Source: Mesotoga infera (GTDB lineage: Bacteria; Thermotogota; Thermotogae; Petrotogales; Kosmotogaceae). Taken from it: 64,000 nucleotides of DNA. The translations under genes and the position numbers were made by a program. Below are positions 56,909-64,000 of the stretch, one piece after another. The notes under the pieces are model-generated. The model was not told the DNA's origin, ran no database searches, and saw nothing but the letters and a program-made list of their open reading frames with translations. Position 1 is the stretch's first letter, and every line of letters starts with the position of its first letter. The DNA lies in NCBI RefSeq assembly GCF_900157305.1, contig NZ_LS974202.1, forward strand, positions 2,294,001 to 2,358,000. Direction: 5' to 3'.

Positions 56909-57921
56909 TTCTTCTCTCCAGACAGAAGTGAGAACAAACCAAGCAGAGAACCAACTCCATACGAAATATGTAGCACGAGATAGCTGACTATTGCAGCAAA
57001 GAGTAAATTCAGCTTCTTAGCTTCCAATGCATGAGAAAAAGAGAAGATAATCACTGTAACAAAATAAGTGACTAACAAGGATATATAGACAAATAGAAAA
57101 TAAGTGACCACAAGAGAAATCAAAAAACCGAGTAGCAAGAAGAGAACGAACATTAGCGGAACCAGATGCCTTTTAGAGTAAGGCACTTCGGCATACTTCT
57201 TTGCGGCAATAACCCAGAAACCATTCTCAAAGTTGTTTTTCGACAGGTCCCTGCATGTTGATCTCGCATAGTAGGTTAGTTCTATATCGGGAAACAAAAT
57301 GATTTTCCCTCCGGCACGTTTTAGCCTTAAGTTGAATTCAATATCCTGATTTCTGACTAGCTTTTCATTGAAATAGCCAATTCTGTCAAAAACTTCTCTC
57401 TTATAGCATCCAAAGGGAACAGTATCTACTTCTATAGGCTTGGTGACGCCTGTTCGAAACTTGGCTCCCCCTACACCCAGTGGGCTAGAAAGAACCTTCG
57501 AAATCGCAATCCCGACGGTCGAACTGATTCTTGGTTCAGTTTTCATAATCCCACCGACATTGTCTGCGCCTGTCTCCAGTGCATGCCGTATGCATTTTGA
57601 GATGTAATCTGATCGCATCTCGCTGTGAGCTCCACTGAAAAAGATGTATTCACCTTTCGAAGCCTTTACACCGAGGTTCATTGCTACAGGTGTGATTTTT
57701 TTTTCGTTATTTACAAGCAGAACTCTTATGTCTCTTTCAGAGAGCTCTCTAACGATCTTTCTGGTTCCATCCTCGCTCATCCCATCTACTACAATAACCT
57801 CTATGAGTTCTTTGGGGTAGTCGCAAGTCAGGAATGACTCGATGCATTTCTCTATAAACTTCTCTTCGTTTCTCGCAGGTATAATTACCGAGACTTTCGG
57901 CAATTCCAAATTACTCACCAC
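56905..57921 (-). CDS. GT2-family glycosyltransferase with membrane helices
   Basis: A 338-residue ExoA-like transferase. Cytoplasmic GT-A domain with KVSVIIPARNEEKFIEKCIE, VDGMSEDGT, SKGEYIFFSGAHSEM (DXD region replaced by SGAH), and the acceptor-side VRNQDIEFNLRLKRAGG. Three to four C-terminal helices (about 250-330) anchor it to the membrane. The first Asp of the usual DXD is absent, so metal binding may differ. GTG start. Confidence 0.85.
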   Translation of the reverse strand: MVSNLELPKVSVIIPARNEEKFIEKCIESFLTCDYPKELIEVIVVDGMSEDGTRKIVRELSERDIRVLLVNNEKKITPVAMNLGVKASKGEYIFFSGAHSEMRSDYISKCIRHALETGADNVGGIMKTEPRISSTVGIAISKVLSSPLGVGGAKFRTGVTKPIEVDTVPFGCYKREVFDRIGYFNEKLVRNQDIEFNLRLKRAGGKIILFPDIELTYYARSTCRDLSKNNFENGFWVIAAKKYAEVPYSKRHLVPLMFVLFLLLGFLISLVVTYFLFVYISLLVTYFVTVIIFSFSHALEAKKLNLLFAAIVSYLVLHISYGVGSLLGLFSLLSGEKK

Positions 57922-57991
57922 ATTTCAGCATCCTGGAGAAAAGGCTGCATTCTTTGAACTCGAAAGATCACACAGAATAAAAAACCTGTTC

Positions 57992-59131
57992 CTAGAACTT
58001 CACAAGAATGCCTTCTTTGGCTGACTTATATATTCCCAGGATGATCTCTACGGACTTCTTTCCTTCTTCTCCGTTGACGAAAGGTTCGCGATCTTCGATT
58101 ATCGCCCTGGCGAAGTCTTCAAAGGCTGCGATATGACCAGAGCCATAAACCGTTTCCGGATCTGGAAGATTCATGAATGGGTGTGAGTCCTCCCCTTCGA
58201 ACCTCCATGTCTGGATTTTATTTACTGCCAGGCCTCCCAGAACGACGGTTCCTTTCTCACCGAAAACGGAGAGAGTCTCTTCGAGATTCCTCGGATATAC
58301 GTTAGCCGTCCCTTCGATTATACCAATCGAACCGTTCTTGAATCTAACAATCGCGGCTCCGAAGTCCTCGGTTTCTATATAAGGGTGATTGTAGTTTTCT
58401 GTCATTGCAAATACTTCCTGCACTTTTCCTCCAAGCATCCATTGAAGTAGATCGATATTGTGAGCACACTGGTTCATGATCGTACCGCCGTCCATCGCCC
58501 ATGTTCCTCGCCAGCTAGCCTGTTTATAATACTCTTCGTTTCTGTTCCATAGAATTCGTGCAGTTGCTGTAAAGACTCTTCCAAATTTACCGGAATCGAT
58601 CGCCTTTCTCAGTTCCTGAACGGGAGGATTGAACCTGTTCTGAACGCAGACAGCAAGTTTCAAGCTATTCTTTCTTGAAAGGGCTATCATCTCATCCATG
58701 TGATCTGTGGACAGAGCCATCGGTTTTTCGACGAGGACGTGTTTGCCAGAAGAGAGAAAGTCGATCGTGTTCCTGTAATGGTTCCCGCTCTCGGTGGCGA
58801 TTGTGACGAAATCGATCTGAGACGAGAAGAGCTCTCTATAGTCGGAGATTACGCGTGGACGCTGGAGATTAGGCTCGGGCGCCTGAGAGGAAGAGAAGCT
58901 GTTCTGGTCATTCTCGGTCTCGTTTTTCTCTCTTATTCTCTCTTTTTCTCCGCTAGCAAGCGATATCTCTCTTCTCCTCATGTATTCTTCTGCAGCTCTC
59001 TCTGCCTTTTCATGTACGAGGTCGCAGACTGCAACGAGATCGATCAAATCACTGTTGGCGGCAAAAGCCTCTATATGTTTCTTCGTTCCTATTCTTCCGC
59101 AACCTATAAGTGCGGCTGTCAGTTTTTTCAT
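57992..59131 (-). CDS. wbpB: WbpB-like UDP-sugar 3-dehydrogenase (Gfo/Idh/MocA) with internal insert
   Basis: A 379-residue NAD-dependent oxidoreductase, probably oxidising C3 of UDP-GlcNAcA in UDP-diNAcGlcA synthesis. The Rossmann start is ALIGCGRIGTKKHIEAF, the catalytic strand is KHVLVEKPMAL (Lys in EKP), and GTWAMDGGTIMNQCAHNIDLLQWMLG is the substrate-site block. Between AAEEY and ISDYRELF, where relatives have about 10 residues, there are almost 50 low-complexity residues rich in E, R, S and N (DNA about 58855-58980). The frame stays open. The assignment to WbpB rests on the neighbouring wbpA-, wbpD- and wbpE-like genes. Confidence 0.85.
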   Translation of the reverse strand: MKKLTAALIGCGRIGTKKHIEAFAANSDLIDLVAVCDLVHEKAERAAEEYMRRREISLASGEKERIREKNETENDQNSFSSSQAPEPNLQRPRVISDYRELFSSQIDFVTIATESGNHYRNTIDFLSSGKHVLVEKPMALSTDHMDEMIALSRKNSLKLAVCVQNRFNPPVQELRKAIDSGKFGRVFTATARILWNRNEEYYKQASWRGTWAMDGGTIMNQCAHNIDLLQWMLGGKVQEVFAMTENYNHPYIETEDFGAAIVRFKNGSIGIIEGTANVYPRNLEETLSVFGEKGTVVLGGLAVNKIQTWRFEGEDSHPFMNLPDPETVYGSGHIAAFEDFARAIIEDREPFVNGEEGKKSVEIILGIYKSAKEGILVKF

Positions 59132-59153
59132 GTGGTCACTCCTATCGTTGTGA

Positions 59154-59186
59154 GGTCTAGGGTATAGGGTTTGGGGTCTAGGGTAT
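59154..59186 (+). repeat. G-rich repeat A
   Basis: Contains GGTCTAGGGTAT twice (59154-59165 and 59175-59186). G runs at 59160-59162, 59167-59169, 59173-59176 and 59181-59183 are separated by 3-4 nt loops, a canonical quadruplex motif. Confidence 0.85.
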
Positions 59187-59207
59187 GGTACGACCTTATA
59201 CCTGAGG

Positions 59208-59570
59208 TCATCGGACTCTATCTTTCTTGATAGCTCTTATTAATGCTCTAAGCATCTTGTTTATTGTTGTGCATTTCTCTGTTATCAACAAACTCTGTTC
59301 GCTGCTTATATAGTCCAGTCTTCTTGCCAGTTCAGTTTGGGTTATCAGTTCTAGAAGAGACCCGAGGGCGATATATAGGAAGTTTATGTACTCTCTTGAG
59401 TGCTGTCTGCCATTTCCTTCTGCAATATTTGACGGAATGGAAATCGATGCTCTTCTCATTTGATCTATAAGCCCAAACATCTCTGATTTGGGAAGTGCCT
59501 TCGTGACTTTATACACGTCTTCAACCAAATCCATGCTGAGATTCCACACATCCAGATCGCGAAAATCCAT
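59208..59570 (-). CDS. Four-helix-bundle protein (S23 / 23S rRNA IVP family)
   Basis: A 120-residue all-helical protein. MDFRDLDVWNLSMDLVEDVY, LIDQMRRASISIPSNIAEGN and REYINFLYIALGSLLELITQ are signature blocks of the family first seen in 23S rRNA intervening sequences and structurally related to Avd of diversity-generating retroelements. The start is ATG 59570 with AGAGG upstream. No rRNA is present. It interrupts the wbpA-wbpB order and is bracketed by inverted G-rich repeats. The family function is unknown; a nucleic-acid-binding role is a reasonable guess from its positively charged relatives. Confidence 0.9.
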   Translation of the reverse strand: MDFRDLDVWNLSMDLVEDVYKVTKALPKSEMFGLIDQMRRASISIPSNIAEGNGRQHSREYINFLYIALGSLLELITQTELARRLDYISSEQSLLITEKCTTINKMLRALIRAIKKDRVR

Positions 59571-59630
59571 TGAAGTCACCTCTCGAACACTGAATATCGT
59601 GTGTTAGTTGGAACAAAGATCAGTGCATCC

Positions 59631-59657
59631 ATACCCCAGACCCCACACTCTATACCC
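59631..59657 (-). repeat. G-rich repeat B
   Basis: On the minus strand it matches repeat A at 24 of 27 positions. It lies between the four-helix-bundle start and the wbpA stop. Two of the G runs are imperfect, so quadruplex spacing is weaker. Confidence 0.8.
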
Positions 59658-59669
59658 AGCGCTTCCCCT

Positions 59670-60974
59670 TCAAAGTACTTCAACATTTTCGCCTGCGATG
59701 CCCATTTTGCTGAGGACGTTCTTGGCGTCGAAGATGTATTTCGCGTTCTCGACTATCATTTTGTAGTCTATGTTTTTCTTGTGAGCGGTCGTGATTATTA
59801 CTGCATCGGCCTGCTTTATGAGGTCTTCCGTGAGAGGGGCTGTTTTCATTTTCTCTCCTTCCCACATAAACTCTCGAACGTATGGATCGACGACCGAAAC
59901 ATGCGCCAGGTTCTTTTCCAGGTGTTCGAGCACTTTGAGCGCGGGCGACTCTCTCATATCTTCGATCTCTTCTTTGTAGGCTATTCCCAGCATGACTACT
60001 TTCGCTCCGTTCATGCATTTGCCCTGCTCGTTCAATGCTTTCATGACTCGGGTTACTACGTATTCTGGCATCGAGTCGTTTATCTCTCCCGAGAGTTCTA
60101 TCAGTCTTGTATGGTAGTCGTACTTTCTCGCTATGTATGTGAGATAGAAGGGATCGATAGGTATGCAGTGGCCGCCGACCCCCGGGCCGGGAAAGAAGGG
60201 CATGAAGCCGAACGGTTTGGTCGAGGCCGCGTTTATGACTTCCCAGATGTTTATGCCCATTTTGTCGGCAACGACTGCCATTTCGTTTATCAGGGCTATG
60301 TTGACTATCCTGAAGGTGTTCTCCAGTATCTTGGTCATCTCGGCCTCTTTCGGAGACGAGACGACGAAGACTTCGGCCTCGAGAACGGATTCATACAGGA
60401 GCTTTGCGACTTCAGTCGATTCCGGGCCAACTCCTCCGACGACTTTCGGTGTGTTTTTAGTCTTGAATCTCAAGTTTCCCGGATCGACTCTCTCGGGGCT
60501 GAATGCGAGATAGAAGTCTTTGCCACATACCAATCCCGTCTCCTCCAGTATCGGTTTCATAACGTCTTCCGTCGTTCCGGGATAAGTCGTCGATTCGAGT
60601 ACGACAAGCATGTCTTTGTGGAGTCTCTTTGCGACATCTTTTGTCGAGTTGATTACATAAGTCAAATCCGGTTGCTTGTATATGTCCAGCGGCGTGGGAA
60701 CACAGATGGCCACCACATCGCAATCGGATAGTTCATCGAAATCAGCTGTCGCCCTTAGATGACCGTCTGAAACGATCTTTTCCAGATCCGCGTTCACCAC
60801 ATCACCGATGTAGTTATGGCCTTCATTTACCATTTTCACTTTACTTTCCTGGATATCGAAACCTATCACTTTGAATCCGGCCTTGGCCTTCTCAACAGCT
60901 AGGGGCAGACCAACGTAGCCTAACCCAATGACTCCTATTATTGCCGACTTGTCTTGAATTCTCTCTTTGAGCAT
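59670..60974 (-). CDS. wbpA: UDP-N-acetylglucosamine 6-dehydrogenase-like nucleotide sugar dehydrogenase
   Basis: A 434-residue UDP-sugar 6-dehydrogenase, probably making UDP-GlcNAcA. The NAD site is VIGLGYVGLPLAVEKAKAG. CVPTPLDIYKQPDL and ESTTYPGTTE are conserved, and the catalytic Cys is in GPGVGGHCIPIDPFYLTY. The C-terminal domain has LGIAYKEEIEDMRESPA. The WbpA/WbpO-type GGHCIPIDP and the wbpB/D/E neighbours favour an N-acetylated substrate over UDP-glucose. Confidence 0.9.
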   Translation of the reverse strand: MLKERIQDKSAIIGVIGLGYVGLPLAVEKAKAGFKVIGFDIQESKVKMVNEGHNYIGDVVNADLEKIVSDGHLRATADFDELSDCDVVAICVPTPLDIYKQPDLTYVINSTKDVAKRLHKDMLVVLESTTYPGTTEDVMKPILEETGLVCGKDFYLAFSPERVDPGNLRFKTKNTPKVVGGVGPESTEVAKLLYESVLEAEVFVVSSPKEAEMTKILENTFRIVNIALINEMAVVADKMGINIWEVINAASTKPFGFMPFFPGPGVGGHCIPIDPFYLTYIARKYDYHTRLIELSGEINDSMPEYVVTRVMKALNEQGKCMNGAKVVMLGIAYKEEIEDMRESPALKVLEHLEKNLAHVSVVDPYVREFMWEGEKMKTAPLTEDLIKQADAVIITTAHKKNIDYKMIVENAKYIFDAKNVLSKMGIAGENVEVL

Positions 60975-61121
60975 GGAAACCTCCCGTATTTGAGACGAGA
61001 TAACGAAGGATCTTGGAGATGGACGAGATTACAGAATCAAATTGAGAAAGTGGGATCTAGAGAAGGATTCATCAGAACGTCCCTTGTTGTACTCTCTCTT
61101 CCTCTCGATGTTCTTCTCTCG
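60975..61121. other. Purine/pyrimidine-biased spacer between wbpD and wbpA
   Basis: 147 bp with no gene. Its minus strand is rich in GAGA-type sequence; 61110-61130 on that strand resembles part of the WbpB insert (58922-58942) at about 19 of 21 positions with one gap. Confidence 0.4.
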
Positions 61122-61853
61122 TTATTCTCGATTGTCAAAGTATTCCTGTTCTTCAATCAATTGCTCTTGTGGCACTTCTCTTATGTATCTTGCCGGGACT
61201 CCGGCGTAAATCTTTCTTGGAGCCAGGTCCCTTGTCACAACGCTCCCTGCTGCTACTAGCGCATCCTCACCAATAGTGATTCCGGGGAGAATCGTTGCAT
61301 TCGCTCCAATTCTTGCCCCTCTTTTCAATGTTGGACCTTTGAAATGCTTTTTTCTTTCTTCTGTTCTTCCTAGAAAGTTGTCGTTTGTGAATGTAACCTC
61401 AGGGGCGATAAAGCAGTAGTCTTCTATAGTTGAAAAGGCGGTTATGTATGCTCCGGTTTCAATCTTCACTCTCTTTCCGACTGAGGTTCCATTTTCGACA
61501 GTGGCTCCCTTTCCCACTATTGTCTTTTCTCCGATTTTCGTTTTCTCTCGAATAGTCGCGAGATCACCGACAAAGCACTTTTCTCCGAGTGATGCTCCCT
61601 TGTAGATGACACAAGAGGCGCCGATTGTAGTTCCATTGCCGACTGCTAAAGGCTGGAGCACTTCAGTGCTCGTGGTGGCGCTTGTGCTGGCTGCATATGG
61701 TTCCTTCCCAAGCACAGTGTTGTCACCTATTGTTACGTAGTCTCCAATGACTACTCCTTTGTGAATCACCACGTTGTGACCTATTACACAATTCTCGCCA
61801 ATCTCTGCGCCATCTTCGATTACTGTGTTTCTTCCTTTCTGGATGTCAGGCAT
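61122..61853 (-). CDS. wbpD: WbpD-like UDP-sugar N-acetyltransferase (left-handed beta helix)
   Basis: A 243-residue hexapeptide-repeat acyltransferase. Repeats such as [20 protein letters not shown] run through most of the chain. The block [21 protein letters not shown] and [20 protein letters not shown] contains the Asn-Asp-Asn loop typical of WbpD relatives. It would acetylate the 3-amino group made by the aminotransferase. The product ends EYFDNRE. Confidence 0.87.
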
Positions 61854-61871
61854 GGGAATACCTCCAGATGA

Positions 61872-61907
61872 GGTTGTTAGTTGTGGGTTGTTGGTTGTAG
61901 GTTATAA
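61872..61907 (+). repeat. G/T-rich short-period repeat
   Basis: Variations of GGTTGTTAGTTGT and GGTTGTTGGTTGTAGG follow one another with a period near 14. Distinct from the G-rich A-E repeats but in the same spacer class. Confidence 0.5.
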
Positions 61908-62169
61908 GACACGAGAAAGAGGTTGTCGAGAAGCTCGCAAAGGGAGCGATACGTATCTGCGATACGAGAGATTTGAGAGAACCAAAGAGACTATGTAGTA
62001 TTTCGCTCGCACCTTCTAGAAATGAATGCAAGAGCAAGAATCTCCAAAAAATGGCAAGTGCAGACATTCCAAGCTTCTTTACACAAATACCCAGTGCCTT
62101 CTCGTTCCCCAACAAGCCACAACACCTCGGTCATATTTTCAGAGTATTTTTGTTGTCAGTCTTTTTTCT

Positions 62170-62215
62170 AAAGATCATTTCTCCTGCGCGAAGCGCACTC
62201 TCGTCAATGATCTTT
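62170..62215. repeat. Nested palindrome after the wbpE stop
   Basis: A perfect 10 bp inverted repeat (AAAGATCATT at 62170-62179 with 62206-62215) encloses an inner hairpin TGCGC-GAA-GCGCA (62185-62197). It begins five bases from the wbpE stop codon. There is no T tract on the transcribed strand (AGAAAAAAG follows), so it is more like a REP-type or structured RNA element than a terminator. Confidence 0.8.
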
Positions 62216-62220
62216 CTCTC

Positions 62221-63444
62221 TTATCTCTCGTTCTTCACAAATTCACCGATCTTCTCGACTACGTACTCAATCTCTTCGTCCGTCATCTCAGGGAATATTG
62301 GCAAAGCAAGAGTCTCTTCACAGGCTTTTTCCGTTTCCGGAAGGCTGCCTGTGGGAACTCCTAAATACTCAAAGCACTTCTGCTGGTGAAGGCCCATTGG
62401 ATAGTAGATAGATGTGCCGATACCTCTACTGGCCAGATGATCTCTCAGTCTGTCTCTCTCTTCTCTGCTGAAGCCTTCAAATCTCACCACGTACTGATGG
62501 AAGACGTGAGGATAGTAACAGTCGTGGATATGGGGTATCGGGTATAGGGTTTGGCCGGGTTTCTTTACATCTTTCTCTTCAGAAACCAGACCCGAGACCC
62601 CAGACCCCAAACCCGCTCTTTCGAAGTGCTCCGCGTACTTCTCGGCTATTTCTCTTCTTCTTTTCTGGTATTCTTCAAGGTGCCTGAGCTTTATGTTCAG
62701 CACTATCGCCTGGAGTTCGTCGAGCCTTGAATTGATCCCTATCATATCGTGAATGTACTTGACGGGAGAACCATGGACTCTGTAGCTTCTGCAGAAGGCG
62801 GCTATTTCATCGTTATCCGTTGCGATCATTCCCCCGTCGCCGTATCCTCCGAGGTTCTTTGTCGGGAAGAATGAGAAGGTCGAAATATCTCCTATCGAGC
62901 CGGTCATTTTGACAGTTCCGTCGCTGTATTTCCAGTTTGCTCCTATCGATTGGGCGCAGTCTTCGATTATCTTTATCCCGTATTTCACTTTGATCTCTTC
63001 GAGTCTCTCGAGGTCGATGGCCTGACCGAAGAGATGAACGGGAATGAAGGCCTTTATCCTTTCTCTTTCCGGGTGGGTTCTGAGTATCTCTTCTACTTTG
63101 TCGAGGTCGATGTTGTAAGTTACCGGGTCGATATCTGCAAAGAGCGGCGTCGCTCCGTTTCTCGTTATGCAGCTGACTGTCGCGAAGAAGGTATAGGGAG
63201 TTGTGATCACATAGTCTCCCGGGCCTATTCCCAGAGCAGCCACTGCTATGAGAAGAGCGTCCGATCCGTTGGCGACACCGATAGCGTGTTTCACCTCTAC
63301 AAGCTCGGCAATGTTCTTCTCGAGTTCTCTGACTGCCTCTCCAAGGATTACTCTTCCACTAGATAGAGCCTCGTCTATCTTCTGGAGAACCTCTTCTCTT
63401 AACTCATCGTATTGCCTTGTCAGATCGAATAATGGAATCTTCAT
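62221..63444 (-). CDS. wbpE: WbpE-like DegT/DnrJ/EryC1 aminotransferase with in-frame repeat insert
   Basis: A 407-residue PLP aminotransferase, expected to convert UDP-3-keto-GlcNAcA to the 3-amino sugar. PLFDLTRQYDELREEVLQ opens it. IGVANGSDALLIAVAALGIG, DIDPVTYNIDLDKVEEIL, EDCAQSIGA and the PLP lysine in FSFFPTKNLGGYGDGGMI are conserved, as are RLDELQAIVLNIKL and HQYVVRF. Between YAEHFERAG and DCYYPHVFHQYVVRF lie about 25 extra residues (GSGVSGLVSEEKDVKKPG and TLYPIPHI). They are encoded by G-rich repeats C1 and C2 and absent from typical relatives. Confidence 0.9.
   Translation of the reverse strand: MKIPLFDLTRQYDELREEVLQKIDEALSSGRVILGEAVRELEKNIAELVEVKHAIGVANGSDALLIAVAALGIGPGDYVITTPYTFFATVSCITRNGATPLFADIDPVTYNIDLDKVEEILRTHPERERIKAFIPVHLFGQAIDLERLEEIKVKYGIKIIEDCAQSIGANWKYSDGTVKMTGSIGDISTFSFFPTKNLGGYGDGGMIATDNDEIAAFCRSYRVHGSPVKYIHDMIGINSRLDELQAIVLNIKLRHLEEYQKRRREIAEKYAEHFERAGLGSGVSGLVSEEKDVKKPGQTLYPIPHIHDCYYPHVFHQYVVRFEGFSREERDRLRDHLASRGIGTSIYYPMGLHQQKCFEYLGVPTGSLPETEKACEETLALPIFPEMTDEEIEYVVEKIGEFVKNER
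62532..62554 (+). repeat. G-rich repeat C1 inside wbpE
   Basis: Shares the 15-mer GGGTATAGGGTTTGG (62540-62554) exactly with repeat A. It lies antisense within the wbpE coding region and pairs as an inverted partner with C2. Confidence 0.85.
62586..62614 (-). repeat. G-rich repeat C2 inside wbpE
   Basis: On the minus strand, the sense strand of wbpE, it has four G runs with 3-4 nt loops, so the mRNA itself could form a quadruplex. Between C1 and C2 a 7 bp stem (62558-62564 with 62581-62587) adds a hairpin. Confidence 0.85.
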
Positions 63445-63463
63445 AAGACCTCCGGTTTTCCAA

Positions 63464-63491
63464 GGGTCTGGGGTTTGGGGTATAGGGTATA
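63464..63491 (+). repeat. G-rich repeat D
   Basis: G runs with TCT, TTT and TATA loops, of the same family as A and C. Lies 20 bp upstream of the wbpE start. Confidence 0.8.
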
Positions 63492-63547
63492 GAAATCAGG
63501 ATTAACGATTGTTAAAGATTTTCTGTAACTGTTTGATTATGTTTTGC

Positions 63548-63577
63548 CAGACCCTTAACCCTATGAACCACACCCTG
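63548..63577 (-). repeat. G-rich repeat E
   Basis: Inverted partner of D, more degenerate; ends 3 bp from the stop of the next gene. D and E enclose 56 bp with no gene. Confidence 0.65.
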
Positions 63578-63579
63578 CT

Positions 63580-63999
63580 CTAATCTACTTGCTCGAGTTC
63601 CACTTTTCCCGTTCGCGATATTGTGAATACCATGACGTTTTTCATTCCGTTTTCTCTTGCGTTTTTGACTATGTTTTCTGCGTGCCTGAACGAAGCGACG
63701 ATTACTGCCGTATCTTCATTGCACGTGACTTCTTCAGGAGAGAAGACGTGTAGATCGTGAAAAGTGCCGTTTTGTTTTGCTATCGAGTCGTCGATGAAGC
63801 CTATTATCTTCATTCCCTCGGTTCTCAATACATCTGCCAGGATACCACCGATTATGCCCGCTCCGTAAAGATAGAAACTCTGGTGCTCGCTCTCCTTTAG
63901 AGTGTCAAGGACCTCGCCGAATATCTCTCTAGATTCGGTGTACAGTTTTGCCGCCTCTTTAAGATAGAGAATCGTTAAATACTGGAGCCTGAACTTTCC
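63580..63999 (-). CDS. Sugar-related Rossmann-domain protein (N-terminus outside window)
   Basis: The frame is open to the right edge, so this is a C-terminal part of at least 139 residues. A helical stretch (LQYLTILYLKEAAKLYTESR) precedes YLYGAGIIGGILADVLRTEG, a nucleotide-binding GxGxxG-like loop, then KIIGFIDDSIAKQNGTFHD, VFSPEEV and AVIVASFRHAENIV. This resembles the PglD N-terminal domain and the C-terminal domain of sugar methyltransferases or NDP-sugar enzymes. Its place upstream of wbpE suggests a polysaccharide role. The exact function cannot be read from this part. Confidence 0.65.
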   Translation of the reverse strand, partial: GKFRLQYLTILYLKEAAKLYTESREIFGEVLDTLKESEHQSFYLYGAGIIGGILADVLRTEGMKIIGFIDDSIAKQNGTFHDLHVFSPEEVTCNEDTAVIVASFRHAENIVKNARENGMKNVMVFTISRTGKVELEQVD

Positions 64000-64000
64000 G

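What the first reader, a model, noticed from the sequence alone, without database searches (positions are those of the whole stretch)
59152..59657. Four-helix-bundle (S23/Avd-like) gene bracketed by inverted G-rich repeats: a candidate undescribed mobile element
Seen: a 27 bp G-rich core at 59160-59186 recurs on the other strand at 59631-59657 with three mismatches, one on each side of a 120-codon S23-type gene that interrupts the wbpA-wbpB order. Known: the S23/IVP family occurs inside 23S rRNA intervening sequences and is structurally related to Avd of diversity-generating retroelements, but has no settled function. Inference: the gene and its inverted repeats form a mobile unit, with the gene-free inverted pairs at 62.5 and 63.5 kb as its non-autonomous derivatives.
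Basis: partly seen in the sequence, partly recalled or inferred. Interest (0 to 1): 0.82.

Follow-up and report, generated by a model that had tools for sequence, protein, structure and literature searches.

The report
S23 mobile element with heptad-repeat ends
A small gene of a long-known family without known function (S23) sits between two mirror-image arrays of a degenerate 7-letter DNA repeat, and the same architecture, with a different repeat each time, surrounds most S23 genes sampled across many bacterial phyla and behaves like a mobile element, which could explain the widespread, unexplained 7-letter repeats in bacterial genomes.

Summary
The "27-bp G-rich core" is an array of degenerate heptads (GGGTNTR); an inverted array lies on the other side of the S23 gene (29 bp, 3 mismatches; score 21.5 against a shuffle maximum of 13.5). 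The second S23 gene of this genome has arms of another heptad (GAGGTNR). In 75 S23 genes from many phyla, inverted 7- or 8-nt arrays flank the gene far more often than other small genes (53% v 4.5%). Arm sequence follows S23 lineage. Gene-free pairs exist; one in the window sits in frame in wbpE, at a site empty in relatives without S23 and filled with other heptad families in relatives with S23. On Nostocales plasmids, arm-S23-arm units are present or absent at sites with 91-98% identical flanks; two of six show clean insertion with a 5-bp duplication. The mobile-unit reading is well supported; that S23 itself binds the arrays and drives mobility is inference. No recombinase is encoded, and several S23-bearing genomes lack any reverse transcriptase. 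Nearest known: S23-bearing 23S rRNA intervening sequences, cyanobacterial STRR heptads, Avd. No paper in the held library links S23 to heptad repeats.

The parts
59208..59579 (-). S23 / four helix bundle gene (123 aa from a GTG; an in-frame ATG nine bases further in is the likelier start)
   Evidence: PF05635 136 bits, TIGR02436 132 bits, weak bAvd and DGR-Avd matches; AlphaFold model pLDDT 93.7, Foldseek to 2gsc (TM 0.93), 2rld, Avd 4dwl
59153..59188 (+). arm: about 5 tandem GGGTNTR heptads, G-rich strand reading towards the gene
   Evidence: scan; unbiased detector; arm alignment
59623..59657 (-). opposite arm: 4-5 inverted GGGTNTR heptads (core 59629-59657)
   Evidence: 26 of 29 identity to the first arm
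62526..62553 (+). gene-free pair, arm 1 (GGGTNTR), inside the wbpE/DegT ORF
62580..62614 (-). gene-free pair, arm 2; arm-loop-arm is an in-frame insert in wbpE, absent from relatives without S23 and from G011
63464..63498 (+). second gene-free pair, arm 1 (GGGTNTR), upstream of wbpE
63548..63575 (-). second gene-free pair, arm 2 (degenerate, weak)
   Evidence: score 0.67 of maximum
61871..61909 (+). array of another heptad family (GTTGTNR), with a weak inverted partner at 62109-62123
   Evidence: the same family forms S23 arms in relatives
58862..58981 (-). in-frame hypervariable insert in wbpB at a site that holds GTTGTNG pairs in other members of the family and is absent from S23-less relatives

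Best explanation
The feature is one copy of a widespread mobile unit built of an S23 gene between two inverted arrays of a degenerate 7- or 8-nt repeat. Shown here: the unit's anatomy (arms of typically 4-5 units within about 100 bp of the gene, G-rich strand reading inward), its occurrence across phyla, the match between S23 lineage and arm sequence, discrete presence or absence at otherwise near-identical sites with 5-bp direct duplications in two of six cases, and gene-free arm pairs inserted in other genes. Inferred: the S23 pentamer recognises the repeat units, roughly one per protomer, and bridges the two arms; host enzymes or an unidentified partner then cut and join, because S23 has no recognisable nuclease; arm pairs that have lost the gene are mobilised in trans or are deletion remnants. 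The extension that this accounts for the scattered heptad repeats of many bacterial genomes is also inference.
For: Broad sample of 75 S23 genes with flanks: inverted-flank score >=12 in 77% against 6.4% of 1015 shifted windows (P=6e-34); >=15 in 53% against 4.5% of 44 other small intergenic-flanked genes (score distributions P=1.6e-9). 111 of 150 flanks carry a significant periodic array, 101 of them period 7 or 8; median 5.0 units; both arms share the period in 35 of 43. Arms have G over C inward in 50 of 52. Arm families map on the S23 tree with the minimum number of changes, 7 for 8 states; all nine S23s flanked by mini-hairpin arrays form one clade, support 99/93. Nostocales plasmids: insertion with 5-bp duplication GTAAT at about 98% flank identity, and TTCTA at a second site. 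Gene-free inserts in wbpE and wbpB filled by different families in different relatives and empty in S23-less ones. Array density 5.5 per 10 kb in the S23-bearing family against 0.2 in the same region of relatives without S23. Both solved S23 structures hold five chains.
Against: No binding, excision or transposition was observed. Only two of six filled/empty comparisons give a clean 5-bp duplication; one overlaps by 3 bp, the other three replace 11-42 bp of the empty sequence, and the two clean cases are the same element subfamily. S23 carries no known catalytic motif. 25 of 75 loci have a significant array on one side only and 7 on neither. Arm types were assigned by eye for the tree test, and close orthologues inflate it. 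In the window's own slot no clean empty site at high identity was found.
Confidence: 0.66

Rival explanations
1. RNA-level element of the 23S-IVS type: the arms pair in the transcript, the hairpin is cut out by RNase III, S23 binds the excised RNA, and spread occurs by reverse transcription with an RT supplied in trans.
For: The transcript folds with a stem closing the whole gene (z = -4.2); the Coxiella IVS is an S23 ORF closed by a 28-bp stem, with tandem heptads GACAGAT upstream of the ORF (PMC4990558); S23 resembles Avd, an RT partner; 122 of 146 nearest neighbour genes lie on the same strand as S23.
Against: RT (PF00078) is absent from S23-bearing genomes G005, G011 (one contig, 99% complete, 6 S23 matches), G013, G015 and G016. 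The order of variable units is not matched between the two arms (31 loci, Fisher P=0.48), so base pairing beyond the consensus is not conserved.
Confidence: 0.17
2. Regulatory system: arrays are binding sites through which S23 controls its own and neighbouring mRNAs; spread of sites is incidental.
For: Arrays lie close to start and stop codons inside operons; S23 is mostly co-directional with neighbours; Geobacter and Xanthomonas heptads were read as regulatory or G4 elements (PMC2700814, PMC4692102).
Against: Presence/absence of the whole unit at near-identical sites, S23 lineage replacement at one slot, and insertion into enzyme reading frames are behaviour of a spreading element. Binding and regulation could still be true in addition.
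Confidence: 0.1
3. Hitchhiking: heptad arrays arise by polymerase slippage in variable islands, and S23 genes merely lie in such islands.
For: Heptamers are the commonest intergenic tandem repeats in prokaryotes (PMC6344855); several S23 neighbours are polysaccharide genes, typical of variable regions.
Against: Other small genes in the same loci lack inverted arrays; arrays are 8 times denser within 350 bp of S23; arm polarity is fixed and boundaries coincide with arms in filled/empty pairs; arm type follows S23 lineage.
Confidence: 0.07

Closest known systems
S23-bearing intervening sequences (IVS) of 23S rRNA, e.g. Coxiella burnetii (PMC4990558)
   Same: S23 ORF enclosed by inverted repeats that can form a stem; tandem heptads next to the ORF; suggested there to be selfish or once mobile
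   Different: Those lie in rRNA genes and are removed by RNase III; this one lies between and inside protein genes, in units with period-7/8 arms, with gene-free derivatives and, at two sites, target duplications
STRR and other G-rich heptad repeats of Nostoc and Xanthomonas (Rehm 2015, PMC4692102)
   Same: Degenerate G-rich heptads, preference for about four units, 70-75 convergent pairs in Xanthomonas; both taxa carry S23 (2gsc is a Xanthomonas campestris protein)
   Different: Described as repeats alone, without a protein, mechanism or link to mobile elements
Avd of diversity-generating retroelements
   Same: Four-helix-bundle fold (Foldseek TM 0.77-0.90)
   Different: No RT, template repeat or variable repeat at this locus; no RT at all in several S23-bearing genomes; about 9% sequence identity
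Insertion sequences with MITEs
   Same: Gene between inverted ends, gene-free derivatives, short target duplication at two sites
   Different: No transposase; ends are tandem arrays whose sequence differs from element to element
Rickettsia palindromic elements (from memory)
   Same: Palindromic repeats tolerated in frame inside genes
   Different: No associated protein gene or heptad structure known to me

Membership tests
S23 / 23S_rRNA_IVP protein family (PF05635) | profile match over cut-off and four-helix-bundle fold | tested here: met
   136 bits against a cut-off of 33.8; model matches 2gsc and 2rld
23S rRNA intervening sequence | located inside an rRNA gene | tested here: not met
   lies between wbpB and wbpA; no Rfam match in 57500-64000
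23S rRNA intervening sequence | S23 ORF closed by complementary termini | tested here: met
   arm alignment 26 of 29; RNA fold z -4.2
23S rRNA intervening sequence | excision by RNase III | not testable with these tools
   needs RNA work
Diversity-generating retroelement | reverse transcriptase and template/variable repeat pair with the Avd | tested here: not met
   no RT in 57500-64000 of the window; S23-bearing G005, G011, G013, G015 and G016 have no PF00078 match; DGR-Avd model matched far below its cut-off (28 against 80 bits)
Insertion sequence / DNA transposon | encodes a transposase or recombinase | tested here: not met
   the only gene between the arms is S23
Insertion sequence / DNA transposon | inverted ends | tested here: met
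Insertion sequence / DNA transposon | target-site duplication | tested here: inconclusive
   5 bp at two of six plasmid sites; not testable in the window's own slot
STRR heptad repeats | tandem degenerate heptads in intergenic DNA | tested here: met
   GGGTNTR arrays; cyanobacterial S23 arms are GGGAGTA, GGGAACA and similar

The most novel reading that the evidence does not exclude
S23 proteins are the DNA- or RNA-recognising factors of a class of transposable units, spread over many phyla, that encode no recombinase; each lineage recognises its own 7-8-nt repeat, about one unit per protomer of the pentamer, and these units are the source of the abundant, unexplained heptad repeats of bacterial genomes and of the S23-type 23S rRNA intervening sequences.
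Probability: 0.45. Interest if true: 0.93.

Novelty: categorically new. Interest (0 to 1): 0.84.

Why it matters
Two old puzzles become one testable question. [quoted passage not shown] Here the repeats are shown to bracket the gene in inverted orientation across phyla, with repeat type following protein lineage and with filled and empty sites. If S23 binds its own repeat, this defines a mobile element class without a recombinase, a repeat-binding ring protein, and a likely origin of 23S intervening sequences and of STRR-type repeats.

Tried and rejected
Exact 27-mer as the element end: rejected, it is a heptad array. Heptads as mere intergenic background: rejected by ORF controls, by 18 distant stretches of the same genome and by S23-less relatives. 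RT-dependent spread: disfavoured, RT missing in five S23-bearing genomes. Perfect hairpin pairing as the conserved feature: unit order in the two arms is not matched. Phage cargo: no S23 match in INPHARED phages. Arm polarity as evidence of gene orientation: dropped, since an inverted pair reads G-rich inward on both strands, so it only fixes inside against outside. S23 in 23S rRNA among the fetched loci: a blastn of E. coli 23S against the loci printed no usable result (only program warnings were seen), so this is untested. Search for a clean empty site inside the genus: the nearest case (G004:C8) keeps part of an arm, a remnant and not an empty site.

Full report
What is there. The window lies in a complete 2.97-Mb genome (G000). 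Between wbpB (57992-59131) and wbpA (59670-60974) an S23 gene (59208-59579, minus) is bracketed by two arrays of a degenerate heptad, GGGTNTR: 59153-59188 on the plus strand and 59623-59657 on the minus strand. The best-matching 29 bp agree at 26 positions, score 21.5 against a shuffle maximum of 13.5. The protein matches PF05635 and TIGR02436 strongly, and its model superposes on the solved S23 proteins 2gsc and 2rld and, more loosely, on Avd. Both solved S23 entries hold five chains, in line with a pentamer.

Not chance, and concentrated around S23 genes in this genome. A detector that knows nothing of the sequence (period 7 or 8, then inverted partner within 700 bp) finds no inverted pair in 18 evenly spaced 20-kb stretches away from S23 genes, against 14 paired hits in the window and around the second S23 gene at 704 kb; shuffles give none. 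Exact GGGTNTRGGGTNTRGGG occurs seven times in the genome, five of them in the window within about 4.5 kb of the S23 gene. The second S23 gene has inverted arms of another heptad, GAGGTNR, with gene-free pairs of the same family beside it.

The same slot in relatives. All nine same-family relatives examined at the wbpB-wbpA slot carry an S23 gene there, but of different lineages and with different arms: GTTGTNG in G005, G008, G011, G015 and G016, CGAGAAGG-like in G001, G004 and G009, CGAGANNC in G012. The slot has thus been occupied repeatedly or the cassette replaced.

General across bacteria. One scan of bacterial genomes with an S23 alignment gave 80 loci from many phyla. In 75 with usable flanks, left flank against reverse complement of right flank scores >=12 in 77%, against 6.4% of shifted windows in the same loci (P=6e-34). 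Against 44 other small genes with intergenic flanks, scores >=15 occur in 53% against 4.5%. 111 of 150 flanks carry a significant periodic array, 65 with period 7 and 36 with period 8; median 5.0 units, mode 4-5.5; left and right periods agree in 35 of 43. Arms read G over C inward in 50 of 52. Arrays are eight times denser within 350 bp of S23 than elsewhere in the loci. The repeat sequence differs from locus to locus.

Protein lineage and arm type go together. On the tree of 43 S23 proteins of the window's family, eight arm types need seven changes, the minimum, and nine S23s flanked by arrays of small hairpins with a constant spacer form one clade with support 99/93. The labels were assigned by eye and some rows are close orthologues, so this is supporting evidence and not a clean test.

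Evidence for mobility. Of 29 public plasmid records with S23, 23 are cyanobacterial, most of them heterocystous, the group known for STRR heptads, and many have such heptads as arms. Six filled/empty comparisons with flanks of about 91-98% identity were read. Trichormus plasmid C against two Nostoc plasmids: a unit starting and ending with the arms, flanked by a duplicated GTAAT. Nostoc ATCC 53789 plasmid a against plasmid c: a duplicated TTCTA; this one was read from the alignment, because the automatic junction call jumped to a second insertion. A third overlaps by 3 bp, and three replace 11-42 bp of the empty sequence. One record has the pair without the gene (L230), one an S23 remnant (L226). 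So the unit inserts discretely; a 5-bp duplication is likely but rests on two cases of one subfamily.

Gene-free pairs. The pair at 62526-62614 lies in frame within wbpE. At that loop, relatives without S23 have 42-43 residues between fixed anchors and G011 has 44; other members of the family have 61-93, with GGGTNTR, GTTGTNG or CGAGAAC arms. wbpB has a comparable site. GTTGTNG arrays occur in 10 of 17 genomes of the family; the four family members without an S23 match have none, and outside the family only one genome rings, together with the reversed control.

Mechanism. Shown: a defined unit, arms alike only in their consensus unit, presence or absence at fixed sites, gene-free derivatives. 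Inferred: the S23 ring binds the repeat units, roughly one per protomer, joins the arms, and lets host or unknown enzymes complete insertion. The lack of matched unit order between arms favours recognition of units over perfect base pairing, although the RNA can fold with a closing stem. An RT is not needed in every host: five S23-bearing genomes have none, two of them incomplete assemblies. The RNA-level, regulatory and hitchhiking rivals are set out separately.

Relation to the known. S23-bearing 23S intervening sequences share the plan, and the Coxiella one even has heptads beside the ORF. G-rich heptads of Xanthomonas and Nostoc were described, partly in convergent pairs, without a protein partner, and a survey found heptamers the commonest intergenic tandem repeats with no known role. 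Searches of the held open-access library found no paper tying S23 to such repeats; subscription journals and preprints were not covered. The unit fails the defining tests of IVS, DGR and insertion sequences, so I rate the class as new while noting that its nearest relative, the IVS, has been suspected of past mobility.

Noticed in passing
L087, L031, L039, L016, L030, L036, L025 (S23 flanks in relatives): One S23 clade is flanked not by heptads but by tandem arrays of a constant 9-11-nt spacer (GGAAGTGATGC, GGACGCAAGGC, GAGCTGGCC) alternating with small hairpins whose stems differ in sequence but stay complementary.
   Followed up: partly
L216 and L217 (Anabaena sp. 90 and Pseudanabaena galeata plasmids): S23 gene between cas6 and cas4 of a CRISPR operon in two different cyanobacteria (annotated type I-D in the first).
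   Followed up: no
window 58862-58981: wbpB has an in-frame insert that varies wholly between relatives; in the window it is not a GGGTNTR pair, in others it is a GTTGTNG pair.
   Followed up: partly
G004:C8:8001-40000 (L086, L087): One relative has 20 S23 matches, many clustered within about 30 kb, with several arm families side by side.
   Followed up: partly
G000:C1:665000-723000 (L010, L012): Identical GGGTCTCGGGTTTCGGGTCTAGGGTCTAG arrays repeated at several places around the second S23 gene, some within what look like larger duplicated blocks.
   Followed up: no
G000 genome-wide: 18 matches to a reverse transcriptase family, many near-identical full-length copies, so retroelements abound in this genome but are absent from some S23-bearing relatives.
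   Followed up: no
L226 (Nostoc sp. C052 plasmid E): S23 remnant with the 3' part of the gene and the right arm missing at a site that is filled or empty in sister plasmids.
   Followed up: partly
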